DNA from: Roseibium album
GTDB taxonomy: Bacteria; Pseudomonadota; Alphaproteobacteria; Rhizobiales; Stappiaceae
Assembly (NCBI RefSeq): GCF_001404515.1
Contig: NZ_CXWE01000004.1
Span: 501,341-565,340 of the forward strand
Direction of reading: 5' to 3'
DNA: 64,000 bases
Part shown: positions 26,188-32,933 of the stretch, in pieces
Layout: each line of letters starts with the position of its first letter
How positions within the stretch are numbered: position 1 is the first letter of the stretch
The notes under the pieces: model-generated
The model's input: only the letters and a program-made list of their open reading frames with translations
Databases searched by the model: none
Told to the model about the DNA's origin: nothing
Made by a program: the position numbers and the translations under genes

Positions 26188-27126
26188 ATGAGGCTGATCG
26201 CCAAAGCTGTCAGTAAGGACTATCTCGATGTGTCGTTCCAGAGCGGCACCAATACCGTTGAAATCGTCGAACGTCCGGGCCGCTGGATGACCGCTGACCG
26301 TCTGGAGAAACTCCGGTCTGACCTGACCGGGATCGCAACGGCAACACTTGAAACCGGGGCACTCCACTACGGAGTGTTGTCAGGCAACCGGGAGCGCCTG
26401 GAAAATGCGATCGTAACGCTGGTAAGGCGAACCAGCGACGGCAAACCCGTTGCATTCAATGCACTTTCATTGATGGACTGCAATCTGTCAGCCTCAAGGT
26501 GCCGGATAATTCACCTTGGTCTGGTCATGATAGATCCGCAGGAACGTCAGAAGGGGCTTTCCTGGATCCTCTACGGACTGACGTGTCTCCTGCTCTTCAT
26601 ACGTGGTGGCTTGCGGCCGCTTTATGTCTCCAATGTCACGCAGGTCCCGGCAGTGGTCGGCATGGTTTGCGAGACGTTTTCCGAAGTGTGCCCAAGCCCA
26701 GAAGAACCGGAACCGAGTGACTTCCGAAAAATCCTGATTGCGCGCGAAATCATGCAGAACCATCGTCATGTGTTTGGCGTGGGCGCTGACGCGGATTTCG
26801 ACGAAAAGCGATTTGTCATTCGCAATGCCTATACCGGTGGATCTGACGACCTGAAAAAAACAATCGAACAAACCACCAGGCATCGTGACGAAAAATACAA
26901 CACCTGGTGTCGAAACGAACTCAACTACGATCGTGGAGACGATGTCTTGCAGATTGGTCTGATCGATCTGGCAGCAGCTCAGCGGTACGTAGCGCGCGCG
27001 GTTCCCAGAGGATCTTTGATGCAGCTGGCGGCGCTGGGCACTTTGGTATTTGCGCGGCGTGTATTTCTTCCCGCGGCGCACTGGTTCAATTCAGAAAAAG
27101 ACTACGGTCTACTGCGGGCACGATGA
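26188..27126 (+). CDS. GNAT-fold-like protein, first gene of ThiF/nitroreductase operon
   Basis: 312 residues. The central segment HLGLVMIDPQERQKGLSWILYG resembles the beta4-P-loop-alpha3 region (motif A) of GNAT acyltransferases, although the acyl-CoA loop RQKGLS is atypical. No other conserved motif is recognised. The ATG at 26188 has a weak GAGAG upstream. Its stop overlaps the ThiF start (ATGA, 27123-27126), so translation of the two is coupled. This suggests that it modifies or binds the same substrate as the ThiF protein. Family assignment is tentative. Confidence 0.6.
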   Translation: MRLIAKAVSKDYLDVSFQSGTNTVEIVERPGRWMTADRLEKLRSDLTGIATATLETGALHYGVLSGNRERLENAIVTLVRRTSDGKPVAFNALSLMDCNLSASRCRIIHLGLVMIDPQERQKGLSWILYGLTCLLLFIRGGLRPLYVSNVTQVPAVVGMVCETFSEVCPSPEEPEPSDFRKILIAREIMQNHRHVFGVGADADFDEKRFVIRNAYTGGSDDLKKTIEQTTRHRDEKYNTWCRNELNYDRGDDVLQIGLIDLAAAQRYVARAVPRGSLMQLAALGTLVFARRVFLPAAHWFNSEKDYGLLRAR

Positions 27127-28004
27127 CATTCACCTACTCGGAATTCACCACACGGAACATCGGATTTGTCACCGAAGCCGAACAGCAGATGTTGAAACAG
27201 GCCTGCGTATTCGTGTGCGGGACAGGCGGAATGGGTGGAGCTGCGATCCAGTCGATCATTCGGGCAGGTGTCGGTAACCTAATCCTCGCGGACCTTGACT
27301 CCTTCGAGACGTCAAACCTCAACCGCCAGGTCTTCGCCAATCTCGATCACCTGGACCGGGACAAGGCCGAAGCAACAAGGGCCCAGTGCCTCAACATCAA
27401 TCCCGATGCCAATATCGACGTCTACGACCAGACCTGGACTCAAAGCGCCACCGAGCTTGTCTCGAAGGCTGACGTGGTCATCAACGGTACCGATGATCTT
27501 GCAGCCACGCTCCTGCTCTATCGCACGTCACGAGAACTTGGCCGTGCCGTCATAGATGCTTACGCTTCCCCGCTTCCATCGATCTATGTAACCCGTCCCG
27601 GAAGACCGATGCCGGAGGAGCGTCTTGGTTATCCGACAATCGGAACCGACTGGAATGCGCTTACGAAAGACCAGTGCGATGCGTCATTCTTCGCTGAAGC
27701 CGTCTATGTCATGCTGAACTCTTCATCCAGGCACCATATCGATCTGGATCTTGCAGCCGATGTCGCTGCCGGCAGGCGAAGCCGGATGTCATTTGCACCC
27801 ATGGTGATCAGCACGGGGACACTGATGGCATATGAAACGCTGGGCCTGGTGCTTGGCAGGACGAGCAATACCGACGAGAACGGCTGGTTCCTCAACCCCT
27901 ATACGGCCAGAATCGAACGTCCGCTCCCTCGCCTCCTGTCCGGAATGTTGAGGCCGTTCGTGCGGCGAAAGCTGACGGGCATGGTTGAGGCAGCCGATGG
28001 GTGA
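27123..28004 (+). CDS. ThiF/E1-like adenylyltransferase
   Basis: 293 residues with the MoeB/ThiF/E1 nucleotide-binding core: GTGGMGG (33-39), acidic LADLDSFETSNLNRQ (Asp57, Asp59, Asn65, Arg68, Gln69), Lys81, and VVINGTDD (118-125). These residues bind ATP and Mg and adenylate a C-terminal glycine carboxylate in the known families. A cysteine at 185 (KDQCDAS) lies where ThiF/MoeB have their reactive Cys, but the structural zinc CxxC pairs are absent. No ThiS/MoaD/ubiquitin-like partner is encoded nearby. It overlaps the genes before (4 bp) and after (8 bp). I recall that mycobacterial Rv1355c-type proteins fuse a ThiF domain to an Acg nitroreductase; the same two domains are separate genes here. 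Confidence 0.85.
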   Translation: MTFTYSEFTTRNIGFVTEAEQQMLKQACVFVCGTGGMGGAAIQSIIRAGVGNLILADLDSFETSNLNRQVFANLDHLDRDKAEATRAQCLNINPDANIDVYDQTWTQSATELVSKADVVINGTDDLAATLLLYRTSRELGRAVIDAYASPLPSIYVTRPGRPMPEERLGYPTIGTDWNALTKDQCDASFFAEAVYVMLNSSSRHHIDLDLAADVAAGRRSRMSFAPMVISTGTLMAYETLGLVLGRTSNTDENGWFLNPYTARIERPLPRLLSGMLRPFVRRKLTGMVEAADG

Positions 28005-29202
28005 ATCGCAACTGGTCACAGACCTCACGGTCACCCTGTCGGCCGTCGTCGGTCTGTTGGTTGTTCGCTGGCAGATCGATCCGGCCAGTGGTGGTGTTGC
28101 CGGCAGGTTCCGTTTTGCGCTGCTTGTGGTCGCTGTCTTTTATTTCGTGCGCGCTGCCGACTGGCTGACAGACTTCGGTCTTTTCAGAACGGCAACCTTC
28201 GTTGCGGCGGCCGTCATACCGTTCGCCGCGTTATTGCTGACGGAGGGTTTCCTGCGCCGTCACGCACCACGTTTCGTGAAACTGGTCGTTGCCGCCGGAA
28301 TGATAGCCACGGGGTGCGCCGCGGTGCTTTTACCCGGCTCAGTCGCGTCCTCTCCAGGTTTTCTGCTTCTCCTGGCCGCGTACCAGTTGATGTCTTTCAC
28401 CTTGATATTCGTGATGCTTCTGACGCGAGACAGATCCAGCCTGACTGCAACTGAAAATACGGCGATCAACAGATTTGCCATTGCGATCCCGATCGTGATG
28501 ATCCTGCTGTTGTCGGACTACGATCTGCTGCCACCGGAAAACCTGCCCTATCTGTCCGGACTTGGGGCGCTGACGATCGCCTGGGTCACCGTGACGCTGG
28601 AAGCCAGGATAGCCAGTGCCGCACGCGTGTTTTCTGCTGTCGCCTCGATTGCCTTCATAGGCTGCCTTGCCTCCTGGCTTGTCAAACTGCAGACGGGTCT
28701 GTCTCCCGAAGAGACACTTGAGACTTCGGCGATTGTCGTTTCGCTTATGCTTGTCCTGGTCCTCGGCCTTTCGTCCGCAGCCATTCGTCGCGACCGCCGT
28801 CAAACATCCCTCCTTGCCGCCATGCGACATGCAAAACGTCTCGACGACTACCTGGCCGCTCTCGACAACAACGGCTTGACGGCCGGTTATACAATTCTGC
28901 GAACAAACGAACTTCAGGACTATGACGGCGATCTAATGGTGCAGGTGCTTAAACCGACGGGATCCCAGAACATGTCCGATCTTCCGAAAAACCGCTCTCT
29001 GGACACGGCAGCACAAAGCCAGATCAGGGAATTGATCGCGCGCACCGGTGGAAACGAGGTTTTGCTCGTGGCTGAAGAACCGCTGATGGTCGCAGTCGGG
29101 TCCCCTGCCGGTTTTTCAGCAACTTCAAGCAGCAGCCTGCGCTCCGCTTTCGGCTTTGCACGGGTGATCGCGGAACGCGACATGGTCCGGAGGGGAACCT
29201 GA
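27997..29202 (+). CDS. Multi-pass membrane protein with cytosolic C-terminal domain
   Basis: 401 residues. About eight hydrophobic helices lie between residues ~10 and 265 (TVTLSAVVGLLVV, FALLVVAVFYFVRAADWL, FVAAAVIPFAALLLTEGF, ... VVSLMLVLVLGLSSAAI). A soluble ~130-residue C-terminal domain follows (RRDRRQTSLLAAMRHAKRL to the end) and resembles no signalling domain I can name. It overlaps the ThiF gene by 8 bp and the next gene by 1 bp, so it belongs to the five-gene operon. It may anchor the modification enzymes or sense a signal; both are guesses. Confidence 0.75.
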   Translation: MGESQLVTDLTVTLSAVVGLLVVRWQIDPASGGVAGRFRFALLVVAVFYFVRAADWLTDFGLFRTATFVAAAVIPFAALLLTEGFLRRHAPRFVKLVVAAGMIATGCAAVLLPGSVASSPGFLLLLAAYQLMSFTLIFVMLLTRDRSSLTATENTAINRFAIAIPIVMILLLSDYDLLPPENLPYLSGLGALTIAWVTVTLEARIASAARVFSAVASIAFIGCLASWLVKLQTGLSPEETLETSAIVVSLMLVLVLGLSSAAIRRDRRQTSLLAAMRHAKRLDDYLAALDNNGLTAGYTILRTNELQDYDGDLMVQVLKPTGSQNMSDLPKNRSLDTAAQSQIRELIARTGGNEVLLVAEEPLMVAVGSPAGFSATSSSSLRSAFGFARVIAERDMVRRGT

Positions 29203-30311
29203 TGACAATCCGTATCGAGACCGGCAATTTCGACGCCTTCTTCCAAGCACCCTTCAATGCTTATGGACCCGACAGTCTTTATGTGTCTCCTCTGCGCGCG
29301 GATCTCCTTCGCTTCGTCTCACACGACAAGAACCCGTTGTTTTCCGGTCCTGACGACATTTCGATCTTCACAGCCTTTCAAGGCGAGAAACCCGTCGGCC
29401 GTCTCACTGCACATGTCCACAACGCGTCCAACAAGAAGTTCGACTGGCGGCGCGCCTATTTCGGCTTTTTCGATTGCACAGATGACGGGGTCGCTGCCAG
29501 CGCCCTGCTGGCCGCTGCCGAAACCTGGGCACACACCCGCGGGTTGGACGAGATTGTCGGAAACATCAACCTGACAGCGATGCAGCAGATTGGTGTCGTT
29601 ACGGACGGGTTCGAAAACGCACCTTACACGGACCAGGTCTGGAACCCTCCCCACATACCGCGGCTATTGGAAGAAAACGGATATGCGCGTGACTTTCCAA
29701 TGGCAACTTTCGAAGTTGATCTGACGTCGTGCGCACCTCCGGCAATCGGACCGAAACAACAGCAGGTACTTGACGATCCGGACTTTGCTTTTGCCCGGAT
29801 TTCACGCTGGAATGTCCGCGAACGGATGGAACAGGCGCGGCTCCTGCTGAACTCGGCCTTTGCGCAAAATCCGATGTTCGTCCCGGTCAGTGCCGACGAA
29901 TACAGTTTTCAGGCCAAGGATATGGTCTGGATAATAGACCCGCGAATTTCCGCACTCCTGACTTACAAAGGCGACCCGGTGGCGACCATCTTGTGCATCC
30001 CGGATCTCAACCCCGTTCTGAAAAAGATCCGGTCACGCCCAGGGCTCACGATGCCGTGGCATTTTCTCCGGCACAGGTTTGCCAACAAGCGCGCCGTGCT
30101 GATCTATTCAGCGGTCCGCGCGGACATGCAGGGCAAGGGCATCAATCCCGTTGTTCTGCGGCATGTGATCCTGGCGATGAAGAAGGCCGGTTACAAGACA
30201 CTCGGCAACACCTGGATCGCTGACGTCAACGCCGCGAGCCTGGCCCAGAAGACGAAGGCCGGTGCCCACATGCTTCACCGCGCGCACCTCTACCGGAAGG
30301 CGCTGACGTGA
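29202..30311 (+). CDS. GNAT-like protein of the YghO type
   Basis: 369 residues, cytosolic. The length and pattern fit the two-domain GNAT-like proteins related to E. coli YghO: an N-terminal half with PVGRLTAHVHNASNKKF and GFFDCTDDGVAASALLAAAETWA, and a C-terminal half with VLIYSAVRADMQGKGINPVVL, where MQGKGI occupies the acyl-CoA pyrophosphate loop position. Acyl transfer to an unknown substrate is the likely chemistry. The start overlaps the previous stop (TGATG). It is the second GNAT-like gene of the operon, which suggests two acylation steps or one heteromeric enzyme. Confidence 0.7.
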   Translation: MTIRIETGNFDAFFQAPFNAYGPDSLYVSPLRADLLRFVSHDKNPLFSGPDDISIFTAFQGEKPVGRLTAHVHNASNKKFDWRRAYFGFFDCTDDGVAASALLAAAETWAHTRGLDEIVGNINLTAMQQIGVVTDGFENAPYTDQVWNPPHIPRLLEENGYARDFPMATFEVDLTSCAPPAIGPKQQQVLDDPDFAFARISRWNVRERMEQARLLLNSAFAQNPMFVPVSADEYSFQAKDMVWIIDPRISALLTYKGDPVATILCIPDLNPVLKKIRSRPGLTMPWHFLRHRFANKRAVLIYSAVRADMQGKGINPVVLRHVILAMKKAGYKTLGNTWIADVNAASLAQKTKAGAHMLHRAHLYRKALT

Positions 30312-31282
30312 CCCCCGAAATTCTCGAAAAGATAGCAGCGGAAGCCAATCTCGCTCCCTCGGCGCACAACACCCAGCCGACCCGCTGGGCGATGGACGGT
30401 CAAAATGCCATTGTTTTGTCCCTCGACCCCGCCCGTCTGCTCCCTGTGGGTGACTCGGAAAACAAGGATGCACGATTGAGTGGCGGTGCCGCACTTTACG
30501 GAACGATGCTTGCCCTTGCCCGCCATGGCCACGGCGTGTCGGGCTGGGAAATTTCTGACGACATCGCCCGCCTCGCCATCGCCGGTCCACCCGGACCTGT
30601 CCAACCGATCGAAACACTGAAAAGACGGACCACGTTCCGCGCAGGGTTCGCACAGGCCAGCCTGGAGCTGCGCAAGTCACTCAGTGATATGTGTGCCGGC
30701 CGTTCCGACACGGCGCTCACGCAGGACGCCCACCGGATTGCGATGCTCTCGGAATTGAACGACCAGGCAAGCCTCAATGTCATGCGCTCTCCGTCATTTC
30801 GTAAGGAGTTGGTAGACTGGATGCGGCTTCGCGCTTCGGACCCGCGCTGGGCCCTTGATGGTCTTTCCGCTGAATCTCTGGCGTTGTCAGGCCTCGAAGC
30901 GCGTATGGCAGGAATTGCGCTTGGACGTCCGGTGTTTGAAATTCTCGACCGGCTTGGGTTCGGCAAGGCGATCGTTTCAGAACACGGCAAAACCGTCACG
31001 GCTACCGGGCTCGTCGCCTTTCACCGTCCGGCAGAAGAAGATCGCTGGACAAGCGGCGGCAAATTCTATGAATTCTGGCTCGCGTTGACCGCCGCCGGAT
31101 TCGCGGCCTGGCCCATGGCCGTCCTCGCCGACGATCCCACGGCACGGCGGGAGGTGATGAAACTGTTTGAGCTCGCCGAGGAGCGCGAACTGATTACGGT
31201 CTTGCGTGTCGGACCCCACCCTGGAAACAGGCAGCCGGAAAAAGCCAGACTGCCAGCCGACCAACTCGTCACAAAAGCTTGA
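30308..31282 (+). CDS. Acg-type nitroreductase family protein
   Basis: 324 residues, starting with GTG inside the previous gene's stop overlap (GTGA). The N-terminus has the FMN-binding motif APSAHNTQPTRW. The protein lacks the usual dimer swap length of NfsB and is closest in layout to the Acg/Rv3131 branch of flavin nitroreductase-fold proteins. Some members of that branch sequester FMN rather than catalyse reduction. It is the last gene of the operon; its 3' end overlaps the convergent cytochrome gene by 14 bp. A flavin-dependent oxidation step, as in azoline dehydrogenases paired with E1-like proteins, is one possible role (inference). Confidence 0.78.
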   Translation: MTPEILEKIAAEANLAPSAHNTQPTRWAMDGQNAIVLSLDPARLLPVGDSENKDARLSGGAALYGTMLALARHGHGVSGWEISDDIARLAIAGPPGPVQPIETLKRRTTFRAGFAQASLELRKSLSDMCAGRSDTALTQDAHRIAMLSELNDQASLNVMRSPSFRKELVDWMRLRASDPRWALDGLSAESLALSGLEARMAGIALGRPVFEILDRLGFGKAIVSEHGKTVTATGLVAFHRPAEEDRWTSGGKFYEFWLALTAAGFAAWPMAVLADDPTARREVMKLFELAEERELITVLRVGPHPGNRQPEKARLPADQLVTKA

Positions 31283-32933
31283 GATATTCCAGAAGTGCCG
31301 CCTTGTCGTCCTCGGACAGGGAAGAGAACGGACGCTCGTGACCCTCGTTCCCCAGGCCATACTGACTGACGTCGATTTCTGCCGAAAGCGCCCAGGGTTC
31401 ATAATCAGGCGGCGGCATCCAGCCTCCTTGCGCATCGTCCGATCCGCGGAGCCCCACCCGTGTCATGTCAAGCGCATGGCCGCCGACGACAAAACGTTCA
31501 GGCCGCTTGTCCGGACGCATGAGGTGCCACAGTGTCGGAACACTGCCGTTGTGAAGATAGGGAGCGCTGGCCCAGATACCGGTCAGCGGCGGCGCCGCGT
31601 AGGCGCCGGTGCTTCTTGCACTGATATAGCGCCCGAAATGACCGGAATTGACGGCGGCAGCGACGTTTTCACCGGTCAATTCCAGACGGCGCCGATCGGT
31701 TCCGATATCTCCCTGCCAGTTTGGAAATGCGACCAACTCCGGTTTGGTGAGATTCTGGTTGTATACGCCGTGGCATTGACTGCAGTTGTCGGCATAAACA
31801 GACCGTCCATCGGTTAGAAGATGTCGGTTGATCTTTCCAGGAAATCTCTGAGGCTCATAGTCTTGAAGCCAACGCAGTACCGCTTCAGCATCCGCAATAT
31901 GGGCCTCGGCTACTTCAGCGCTTACCCCCATACTCGGAACCGTGAAATAGGCGACGATGGATGCCATTTCCTTCAGATGGTTTTCATCGAGATCCTTCGG
32001 AACGGTTTCCGAGAGGGGATCAACGCCCGGTGGCACGTAGGAGCCGGTGTTGAGGAAGCTGCGCCGCCAGAGCCTCCCACCAAGCTCGGGAACCGAATTG
32101 AAGACGCTCTTGTCGACAACGGTACCCTCGGGAATAAGCCCCAGCCGGTTGCGCAATGCATCGAGACCGTTTGTTGCACCGGGTAACCCGGCCACGAACG
32201 GAACAAGTCGACCAATAGTCCTGTTCCTTTCGTCCATTTCCTGTTGAAGCATTGGCAATATCGCGAAACGAAGCGTTTGCCGTTCACTCCAGCCTGTCTC
32301 CGGAAACAGGATCTCGACAGTCTCAAACAGCTTTGCATCGTCATGTCCGTAAGTCCGGAACGCTGAATGGAGCGCAGCGGTATAGGCTTCCAGATTGATC
32401 GAACTGTTTGGCATGCCCAACCAGATTCTTGTCGTATCCGGTGTGCCGTCCTCCCGGTAGGTCACGGCCGAATGGCAGGCTGCGCAACCGGTGTTTCCAA
32501 TGGTCACGGCAATCGGCAGGAGTGCATGCTTCGCAAGACCGGTATTGATCCCGACCGGTTTCGAGAGATCCGGCCTGGCAAGTGTCGGCGGCCAGTTGGC
32601 GATCTGCGTCGGACTGTGAAATCCGAACCCGCGATAGATCGCGGCAATATCAATTTGCTTCAATGCTGCAACGTCGCCGGCGGTTTCCTGGAGCGCCAAC
32701 GCTGAAACTGCAAGTTTCCAGGGTGCCGCCGACGTTCGCAGCGTGTCCGAACTCAGACCGCCGAAGTCGCCGAAACCGAACAGAGCAATACCCTCTTCTG
32801 TCCCGGACATCGCGCCGGTTTCAAACCGTGTCAGCGACGCCGATGATGTTTTGAGTTTCGTGGGATCACTGATCCAGACAAAAACTGCCAAGGCAATGAG
32901 CATCAGCAGCAAAGCTGTCCCAATTCGCTTCAT
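31269..32933 (-). CDS. Di-haem cytochrome c, peroxidase/MauG-related
   Basis: 554 residues. An N-terminal membrane anchor or signal helix (RIGTALLLMLIALAVFVWIS) is followed by two c-type haem sites: CAACH at 150-154 and CSQCH at 384-388. The C-terminal domain (PPLTGIWASAPYLHNGSVPTLWHLM) is typical of the di-haem cytochrome c peroxidase/thiol oxidase (DUF3365-free, RoxA-like) group. It is longer than classic CcpA. It would sit in the periplasm facing the membrane. The ATG at 32933 follows GAGGGG; an upstream start at 32987 is less likely. It is a single gene, convergent with the nitroreductase. The substrate is not evident. Confidence 0.85.
   Translation of the reverse strand: MKRIGTALLLMLIALAVFVWISDPTKLKTSSASLTRFETGAMSGTEEGIALFGFGDFGGLSSDTLRTSAAPWKLAVSALALQETAGDVAALKQIDIAAIYRGFGFHSPTQIANWPPTLARPDLSKPVGINTGLAKHALLPIAVTIGNTGCAACHSAVTYREDGTPDTTRIWLGMPNSSINLEAYTAALHSAFRTYGHDDAKLFETVEILFPETGWSERQTLRFAILPMLQQEMDERNRTIGRLVPFVAGLPGATNGLDALRNRLGLIPEGTVVDKSVFNSVPELGGRLWRRSFLNTGSYVPPGVDPLSETVPKDLDENHLKEMASIVAYFTVPSMGVSAEVAEAHIADAEAVLRWLQDYEPQRFPGKINRHLLTDGRSVYADNCSQCHGVYNQNLTKPELVAFPNWQGDIGTDRRRLELTGENVAAAVNSGHFGRYISARSTGAYAAPPLTGIWASAPYLHNGSVPTLWHLMRPDKRPERFVVGGHALDMTRVGLRGSDDAQGGWMPPPDYEPWALSAEIDVSQYGLGNEGHERPFSSLSEDDKAALLEYLKLL

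What the first reader, a model, noticed from the sequence alone, without database searches (positions are those of the whole stretch)
26188..31282. Five-gene overlapping operon: GNAT-like, ThiF/E1-like, membrane protein, GNAT-like, Acg nitroreductase
All four junctions overlap (ATGA, 8 bp, TGATG, GTGA), so the proteins are made together. An E1-like adenylyltransferase needs a carboxylate substrate, yet no ThiS/MoaD/ubiquitin-like partner, YcaO or JAB protease is encoded nearby. Established: E1-like proteins plus flavin enzymes occur in azole/thiazole-forming natural-product clusters, and I recall mycobacterial Rv1355c fusing a ThiF and an Acg-type nitroreductase domain. Inference: this is an unfused version of that module with two acyltransferase-like proteins and a membrane protein, perhaps modifying a peptide or small molecule at the membrane.
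Basis: partly seen in the sequence, partly recalled or inferred. Interest (0 to 1): 0.78.

Follow-up and report, generated by a model that had tools for sequence, protein, structure and literature searches.

The report
Oxazolone-like lipid operon, nested modules
Five overlapping bacterial genes, kept together in many marine and soil bacteria, look like an assembly line that joins a fatty acid to an amino acid and then closes and oxidises the product; one enzyme and one membrane protein of the line match no described protein family in the libraries searched.

Summary
Five genes (here A to E) overlap at all four junctions at 26188-31282 and encode a GNAT-fold acyltransferase without a family (A), a ThiF-type adenylyltransferase (B), a membrane protein of about nine helices without a family (C), a full-length YghO/bacterial-ceramide-synthase-like N-acyltransferase (D) and an Acg-type flavin enzyme (E). 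Of the 80 best A loci kept from GTDB genomes, 35 show A-B-C-D-E (one decayed), 15 A-B-C-E and 25 A-C. All 36 loci with D have B; A sits with C in 79. B/D/E were lost repeatedly while A and C stayed. The missing-substrate puzzle has a published answer: ThiF plus flavin enzyme plus N-acyltransferase makes acyl-oxazolones (OxzAB, TyzABC, TrzAS), where the ThiF substrate is an N-acyl amino acid. Best reading: A (with C) makes an N-acyl amino acid-like lipid, B cyclises it, E desaturates it, D adds or transfers a second acyl chain. The chemistry is inferred, not shown; E scores nearer to Acg than to the Rv1355c model, and A shows no sequence relation to a known-type synthase. It works like an oxazolone pathway but is a new variant. 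Neighbours (RoxA-like cytochrome; or PspA/YiaAB/Aas) suggest an envelope role.

The parts
26188..27126 (+). A: 312-aa GNAT-fold protein of an unnamed family with a C-terminal hydrophobic helix (low confidence beyond about residue 290); proposed amino-acid N-acyltransferase
   Evidence: weak GNAT Pfam matches in 10 and 7 of 45 members
27123..28004 (+). B: 293-aa ThiF/E1-like adenylyltransferase, catalytic residues R11, N65, R68, K81, D124 kept, no CxxC; proposed cyclase
27997..29202 (+). C: 401-aa membrane protein, about 9 transmembrane segments, proposed N-outside, with a 145-aa cytoplasmic C-terminal part; no family
   Evidence: hydropathy only
29202..30311 (+). D: 369-aa GNAT protein, full-length homologue of E. 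coli YghO, which the literature groups with CC_1154 (bacterial ceramide synthase, aca)
   Evidence: literature link
30308..31282 (+). E: 324-aa Acg-type FMN nitroreductase-fold protein (APSxHNxQP motif exact in 40 of 49 relatives); proposed flavin-dependent desaturase
31269..32933 (-). F: RoxA-like di-heme c-type cytochrome, convergent with and overlapping E (start codon chosen by me); neighbour of the operon in 19 of 80 loci, direct role not shown

Best explanation
The operon encodes a membrane-associated pathway for a modified N-acyl amino acid lipid, working like the acyl-oxazolone pathways. Inferred steps: (1) A, with C as constant membrane partner (anchor, acyl supply or export), N-acylates an amino acid with a fatty acyl thioester. 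(2) B uses ATP to make the acyl-adenylate of the free carboxylate, and the amide oxygen closes an oxazolone ring. (3) E, an FMN oxidase, desaturates it to the 2,3-dehydro product. (4) D, an acyltransferase of the YghO/ceramide-synthase kind, adds or transfers a second acyl chain in those species that carry it. Shown here: gene order, conservation, catalytic residues, homology, the nested presence D within B+E within A+C, and repeated gain or loss of B/D/E. Not shown: every reaction, the amino acid, the acyl chain and the role of C.
For: ThiF + flavin-dependent oxidase + N-acyltransferase is the gene set of the proven pathways (PMC10404671; PMC12856293). B keeps the equivalents of MoeB R14, N70, R73, K86, D130 in 20 of 20 B rows, as do 19 of 19 oxazolone-type ThiF rows; that D124 of B corresponds to D217 of TrzS is inferred, TrzS was not aligned. 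B's best NCBIfam model is PRK08223 (100.4 bits, below its cut-off of 266), the model that the two gamma oxazolone-type ThiF proteins tested exceed (406 and 453 bits). In a 44-row tree the 20 B rows and 19 oxazolone-type rows lie together against five MoeB/ThiF/TcdA/own-paralogue rows at 94/73. D is homologous over 377 residues to YghO (24%; 99.9% profile probability), which PMC9386255 lists as an aca N-acyltransferase gene of dihydroceramide synthesis (passages). Nested presence: of 80 loci, 36 have D, all 36 have B and 35 have E (the other, L067, is a contig end); 25 have neither B, D nor E. The labels A-C, A-B-C-E and A-B-C-D-E need at least 7, 6 and 8 changes on the A tree, and L063, L047 and L085 keep stubs of lost genes (the last two weak, E 0.002), so B/E/D look like tailoring steps after A+C. 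Lipid and envelope neighbours.
Against: E and five relatives score 119-167 bits with the Acg-family model but 30-66 bits with the Rv1355c model, whereas the flavin domains of six gamma oxazolone-type comparators score about equally with both (77.7-132 and 89-131 bits); so E is nearer to Acg, whose reaction is unknown, and may not act on the same kind of substrate. A shows no sequence relation to a known-type NAS (exosortase-type acyltransferase in L113; profile probability 0.4%). B and the oxazolone-type ThiF are separate clades with long branches, and the tool warns that such joins may be false; the Asn67 shared by both is also in E. coli TcdA. A-C without B/E in 25 of 80 loci means that the core product needs no cyclisation. 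No product has been measured.
Confidence: 0.55

Rival explanations
1. A diacyl amino acid or amino-alcohol lipid pathway without a final oxazolone: B activates the carboxylate only so that D or water/alcohol can take it, giving an N-acyl dehydroamino acid, ester or amide, as in stieleriacines and thalassotalic acids.
For: PMC12479983 reports the same ThiF + nitroreductase + N-acyl amino acid synthase set in producers of N-acyl dehydrotyrosines in which no oxazolone was seen (passages). D is a second acyltransferase of the ceramide-synthase kind.
Against: The tailoring gene seen in the Stieleria clusters, a methyltransferase, is not among the five genes; no product is known either way.
Confidence: 0.25
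2. Synthase-receptor pair with add-ons: A makes an acyl-amino-acid signal like an acyl-homoserine lactone and C is its 9-helix receptor (compare LuxM-LuxN, recalled); B, E and D change the signal.
Against: Most of the best-conserved charged residues of C (R37, E83, R87, R88, H89, K95, R144, E153, R159) lie in predicted cytoplasmic loops; only R52 and D174 lie within or outside the membrane. C shows no kinase or other output domain in Pfam. The RpaI match is no better than to other GNATs.
Confidence: 0.12
3. Ordinary thiamine or molybdopterin ThiF/MoeB with its sulfur carrier encoded elsewhere.
For: ThiF fold with all catalytic residues.
Against: The genome has another ThiF/MoeB gene scoring 256 bits against 117 for B; no CxxC in 52 of 52 B rows (one row, L078, is a wrong frame); B at E<=1e-25 is absent from 203 of 204 same-order genomes.
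Confidence: 0.02
4. Peptide (azole/RiPP-like) or ubiquitin-like protein modification, or an anti-phage E1 system.
For: PADLOC E1-E2 models match the E1 core of B (52 bits at best).
Against: No E2, JAB, YcaO or ubiquitin-like match among the five proteins (neighbouring genes were not scanned for these); no ORF of 20-110 aa ending in GG within 2 kb.
Confidence: 0.04

Closest known systems
TyzA-TyzB-TyzC (Rv2336, Rv2338c, Rv2337c), acyl-tyrazolone pathway
   Same: Separate N-acyltransferase, ThiF cyclase and flavin-dependent oxidase genes in one locus
   Different: A is a GNAT-fold family with no sequence match to an NAS comparator (TyzA itself was not compared); E is nearer to Acg; two extra genes C and D
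OxzA-OxzB (Pseudoalteromonas) and TrzA-TrzS (Rv1356c-Rv1355c)
   Same: ThiF plus nitroreductase-fold oxidase with an N-acyltransferase next door
   Different: There ThiF and oxidase are one fused protein; here five separate genes, with nested loss of B/E/D
NasY clusters of stieleriacines, thalassotalic and kyonggic acids
   Same: N-acyl amino acid synthase with ThiF and nitroreductase genes, in close or overlapping order in two of the producers
   Different: NAS type; no C or D reported in the passages read
YghO / CC_1154 bacterial ceramide synthase (aca, bCerS)
   Same: D is homologous to YghO over its full length
   Different: 24% identity; D sits with ThiF and nitroreductase genes
Acg / Rv3131 flavin-dependent oxidases (FDO-B)
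   Same: E matches the Acg-family model over its full length (below cut-off) and MsAcg in the PDB (2ymv, E 3.8e-4)
   Different: Acg itself has no known reaction; E is tied to a ThiF gene

Membership tests
Acyl-oxazolone (Oxz/Tyz/Trz) pathway | ThiF-type cyclase encoded next to or fused with a flavin-dependent oxidase | tested here: met
   B and E both in one operon in 50 of 80 loci; here C, or C and D, lie between them
Acyl-oxazolone (Oxz/Tyz/Trz) pathway | Adenylation residues of the ThiF fold intact | tested here: met
   R11, N65, R68, K81, D124 in 20 of 20 rows
Acyl-oxazolone (Oxz/Tyz/Trz) pathway | ThiF of the same sequence family as the proven cyclases | tested here: inconclusive
   Best NCBIfam model PRK08223 but 100 bits against a cut-off of 266; tree join 94/73 with long branches; TyzB, OxzB and TrzS themselves were not in the tree
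Acyl-oxazolone (Oxz/Tyz/Trz) pathway | Oxidase of the FDO-A kind (TyzC, OxzB, Rv1355c) and not Acg-like FDO-B | tested here: inconclusive
   E and five relatives: Acg model 119-167 bits, Rv1355c model 30-66 bits; six comparators score about equally with both. This leans against FDO-A, but the network classes of the paper were not rebuilt
Acyl-oxazolone (Oxz/Tyz/Trz) pathway | N-acyl amino acid synthase of the LuxI/FeeM/exosortase-acyltransferase sequence kind | tested here: not met
   A: no NCBIfam match; 0.4% profile probability against the NAS of L113; only the GNAT fold is shared
Acyl-oxazolone (Oxz/Tyz/Trz) pathway | Makes an acyl-oxazolone | not testable with these tools
   needs enzymes and mass spectrometry
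FeeM-type N-acyl amino acid synthases | Structural match of A to FeeM | tested here: inconclusive
   FeeM is not among the 50 rows shown; that excludes nothing
YghO / bacterial ceramide synthase (aca) | Full-length homology to YghO | tested here: met
YghO / bacterial ceramide synthase (aca) | Serine palmitoyltransferase and reductase genes nearby | not tested
   flanks were clustered without a specific search for them
MoeB/ThiF sulfur-carrier activators | Zinc-binding CxxC pairs | tested here: not met
   0 of 52 B rows; MoeB C172, C175, C244, C247 have no Cys counterpart in the window's B; 9 of 19 oxazolone-type rows also lack CxxC, 10 have it
Rv1355c family (NF005901) | ThiF and oxidase in one chain, score over 476 bits | tested here: not met
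   separate genes; 41.8 and 53.9 bits
Anti-phage E1-E2 systems | E1 with E2 and/or JAB partner | tested here: not met
   only the E1 core of B matches; no E2 or JAB match in the other four proteins

The most novel reading that the evidence does not exclude
A new kind of bacterial membrane lipid pathway built as nested modules: a hardly separable two-protein core (an unnamed GNAT acyltransferase family and a 9-helix membrane partner) makes an N-acyl amino acid lipid, an independently recruited ThiF/Acg-type pair turns it into an oxazolone or dehydro lipid, a ceramide-synthase-like enzyme adds a second chain, and a periplasmic RoxA-like cytochrome works on the exported product, as part of envelope-stress physiology (PspA, YiaAB, Aas neighbours).
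Probability: 0.3. Interest if true: 0.8.

Novelty: new variant of a known kind. Interest (0 to 1): 0.6.

Why it matters
The authors of PMC12856293 call the physiological role of oxazolones a major unresolved question. A conserved operon in culturable marine and soil bacteria, with natural lineages that have lost B, D or E while keeping A and C, makes that question testable by deletion and lipidomics. It also gives a possible reaction context for Acg-type oxidases, whose function is unknown, and points to two protein families (A and C) that are called hypothetical in the three annotated plasmid records that I read.

Tried and rejected
Housekeeping ThiF/MoeB: rejected. RiPP/azole or ubiquitin-like peptide partner: no support. 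Defence system: PADLOC finds only the generic E1 core.

PDB sequence searches for A (single and profile) gave nothing of use; the profile of C gave helix noise (GPR4, PsaX2); the profile of D gave GNAT domains. Pfam scans of 78 C proteins gave scattered weak membrane models (at most 3 of 78 members each). FeeM was not seen in the VIA list, which excludes nothing.

The E tree holds only three groups, so it says nothing about which two are sisters; I used profile scores instead. A first version of that comparison set the whole fused protein L122 against the Rv1355c model, which covers its ThiF part too; one search repeated it with flavin domains alone, and the comparators then score about equally with both models. 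The motif NxNRQ looked like a mark of cyclases (51 of 52 B rows, 19 of 19 oxazolone-type) but E. coli TcdA has it too. Absence of CxxC does not set B and the oxazolone-type apart from MoeB cleanly: 10 of 19 oxazolone-type rows have it.

Errors of mine: my ORF picker chose wrong frames for A of L071 and L110 and took a C frame as B of L063 and, by its coordinates, of L078; the 'B|L063' and 'B|L078' hits are therefore hits of C and were ignored, and the odd row of the 52 is probably L078. Conservation lists include those rows. L033 (A 97% identical) has an N gap inside B and an apparently shifted A frame, so its lack of C is not informative. L085 and L098 end in or just after C, so D and E cannot be judged in these two of the 25 A-C loci. 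L029 holds a broken A (stops) and was left out of the alignments. Weak Aas hits in L037 and L081 (30% and 28% over 162 and 334 aa) are not counted as Aas.

Rows dropped: A tree 78 rows (77 of 80 loci, without L033, L071, L110, plus the window); C alignment 78 rows (window, 74 of the 79 C genes of the 80 loci, three from other loci); B tree 20 B rows (window, 16 of the 54 loci with B, three others). The 80 loci are the best of 283 relatives, so they lean towards close relatives of the window, and all sampling was by A.
Full report
WHAT IS THERE. I call the genes A (26188-27126), B (27123-28004), C (27997-29202), D (29202-30311) and E (30308-31282). The window lies at G000:C4:501341-565340 of a 6.9-Mb genome. 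The nearest named A is that of Labrenzia sp. DG1229 (97%), so the organism is probably a Roseibium/Labrenzia relative (inference).

CONSERVATION. A was found in 9 of 297 genomes of the same order, 3 of 385 of the class and 8 of 398 of the phylum (own genome counted each time; the sets overlap). The four same-genus genomes listed lack it. So the operon is rare and patchy, which fits horizontal transfer; it also occurs in records titled Lysobacter sp. MMG2 (L072) and, in a metagenome-assembled genome, Halomonas sp. (L111). A pattern scan of GTDB genomes found 283 relatives, of which the best 80 were kept. Architectures of these 80 by tblastn: A-B-C-D-E 35, A-C 25, A-B-C-E 15, A-B-C 2, A-B 1, A-B-C-D 1, A-C-E 1. 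C is present in 79, B in 54, E in 51, D in 36. The one locus without C, L033, has an N gap. D is always with B, and with E in 35 (L067 ends at its contig end). In five A-C genomes searched whole, B was absent (only ThiF-like genes at E 2e-15 or weaker) and D was absent at E<=1e-6; E was not searched there. C was found in 4 of 204 same-order genomes, all A-positive; B at E<=1e-25 was found only in the window's genome among the 204. The other five A-positive genomes were evidently not in that draw, since G207 and G257 carry B.

HISTORY. On a 78-row tree of A the labels A-C, A-B-C-E and A-B-C-D-E (with A-B-C-D) need at least 7, 6 and 8 changes. In Mesorhizobium sp. ES1-1 (L063, counted among the 35) a B stub of 38 residues, a D stub of 45 and the second half of E remain around an intact C; L047 keeps a possible D stub and L085 a possible B stub (both E 0.002). 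So B, D and E have been lost or gained several times while A and C stayed. The nesting D within B+E within A+C is what one expects of sequential tailoring steps on a core product (inference). Exceptions: L099 (A-C-E) and L050 (A-B-C, not at a contig end).

CHEMISTRY FROM KNOWN SYSTEMS. In Mycobacterium, Rhodococcus and Pseudoalteromonas, an N-acyltransferase, a ThiF-like cyclase and a flavin oxidase make acyl-oxazolones: TyzA/B/C (PMC10404671; I read parts 1 and 2 of 6 and passages) and TrzA/TrzS, where TrzS is Rv1355c (PMC12856293; parts 1-3 of 7, the Discussion and passages). OxzAB is cited through those papers; I did not see its own paper. PMC12479983 (passages) ties the same gene set to N-acyl dehydrotyrosines. 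Recalled, not tested: TcdA, another ThiF-fold enzyme, also closes an oxazolone-type ring on a small carboxylate.

TESTS OF KINSHIP. B keeps all five MoeB-equivalent adenylation residues in 20 of 20 rows (which MoeB residues matter is recalled). Its best NCBIfam model is PRK08223 (100.4 bits, cut-off 266); two gamma ThiF proteins of the oxazolone type score 406 and 453 bits with it. Those comparators come from 19 loci (18 of 185 genomes, and L113); in the short stretches held, 10 of the 19 show a nitroreductase match and a similar number an exosortase-type acyltransferase match beside the ThiF gene. In a 44-row tree B (20 rows, 100/98) and those proteins (19 rows, 99/97) are two clades that sit together against MoeB, ThiF, TcdA and two paralogues of the window's genome at 94/73, with long branches. 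Against the reading: E and five relatives score 119-167 bits with the Acg model and 30-66 with the Rv1355c model, while the flavin domains of six comparators score about equally with both, and A has no detectable sequence relation to the NAS beside a comparator. I therefore say that the operon works like an oxazolone pathway but do not file it as a member.

D. YghO and D align over 377 columns at 24% identity (profile 99.9%). PMC9386255 (passages) lists yghO and CC_1154 as the acyl-CoA N-acyltransferase (aca) gene of dihydroceramide synthesis; PMC11087976 (passages) describes bCerS as a cytoplasmic peripheral membrane acyltransferase. That CC_1154 and bCerS are the same gene is recalled. D is thus most likely a second long-chain acyltransferase; its acceptor is unknown.

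NEIGHBOURS. A RoxA-like di-heme cytochrome c (31269-32933, minus strand; Pfam RoxA-like 4.7e-22; NF040606 129.9 bits, below its cut-off of 150) lies convergent just after E. A homologue lies near the operon in 19 of 80 loci, 18 of them A-B-C-D-E, and in 18 of the 19 within 65 nt of it, over nine families by the record titles and the labels. In other loci the neighbours are Aas (15 good matches of 17 hits), PspA (18), YiaA/B (20) and a TetR regulator (18), in both orientations; family names. From genome sizes I would expect well under one PspA neighbour in 80 by chance (rough estimate, no control run, and related loci are not independent). These links point to the envelope and fatty-acid handling.

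PRINT. Searches for 'Rv1355c', 'oxazolone + nitroreductase + ThiF', 'oxazolone + OxzA', 'ThiF + nitroreductase + GNAT + operon + lipid', 'N-acyl amino acid / Rhodobacteraceae / biosynthesis gene / oxazolone' (three of four) and 'tyrazolone' listed no paper whose title or abstract start describes this five-gene operon; the word Alphaproteobacteria does not occur in the main text of PMC12856293 or PMC10404671. Most subscription papers and all supplements were out of reach.

VERDICT. A real, conserved and nested operon; the best reading is an oxazolone-like N-acyl amino acid lipid pathway with a new acyltransferase family and a new membrane partner; chemistry unproven.

Noticed in passing
window 31269-32933 (-): RoxA-like di-heme cytochrome c convergent with E; a homologue lies next to the operon in 19 of 80 loci, 18 of them with D; none of these 19 has a good Aas neighbour.
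   Followed up: partly
L044, L046, L047, L050, L051, L054, L056, L060, L062-L064, L079, L102, L105, L110: Acyl-ACP synthetase/lysophospholipid acyltransferase (LplT-Aas) gene directly beside the operon, often with YiaA/B, PspA/IM30 and a TetR regulator beyond it.
   Followed up: partly
L075, L078, L084 and Bradyrhizobium loci L082, L094, L098, L101, L107, L108: PspA/YiaAB(/TetR) block next to the operon without Aas, downstream in Ruegeria/Mesobacterium and upstream in Bradyrhizobium.
   Followed up: partly
L063:8903-10831: Mesorhizobium locus with stubs of B, D and half of E around intact A and C, a snapshot of module loss.
   Followed up: yes
G000:C21:2109-2816 and G000:C11:11275-11625: Two further ThiF-family matches of the window's genome (489- and 504-aa open frames) that are neither B nor the MoeB-like gene; not examined beyond one row in a tree.
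   Followed up: no
L099 and L050: A-C-E without B, and A-B-C without D and E: the two exceptions to the B+E pairing that are not contig ends.
   Followed up: partly
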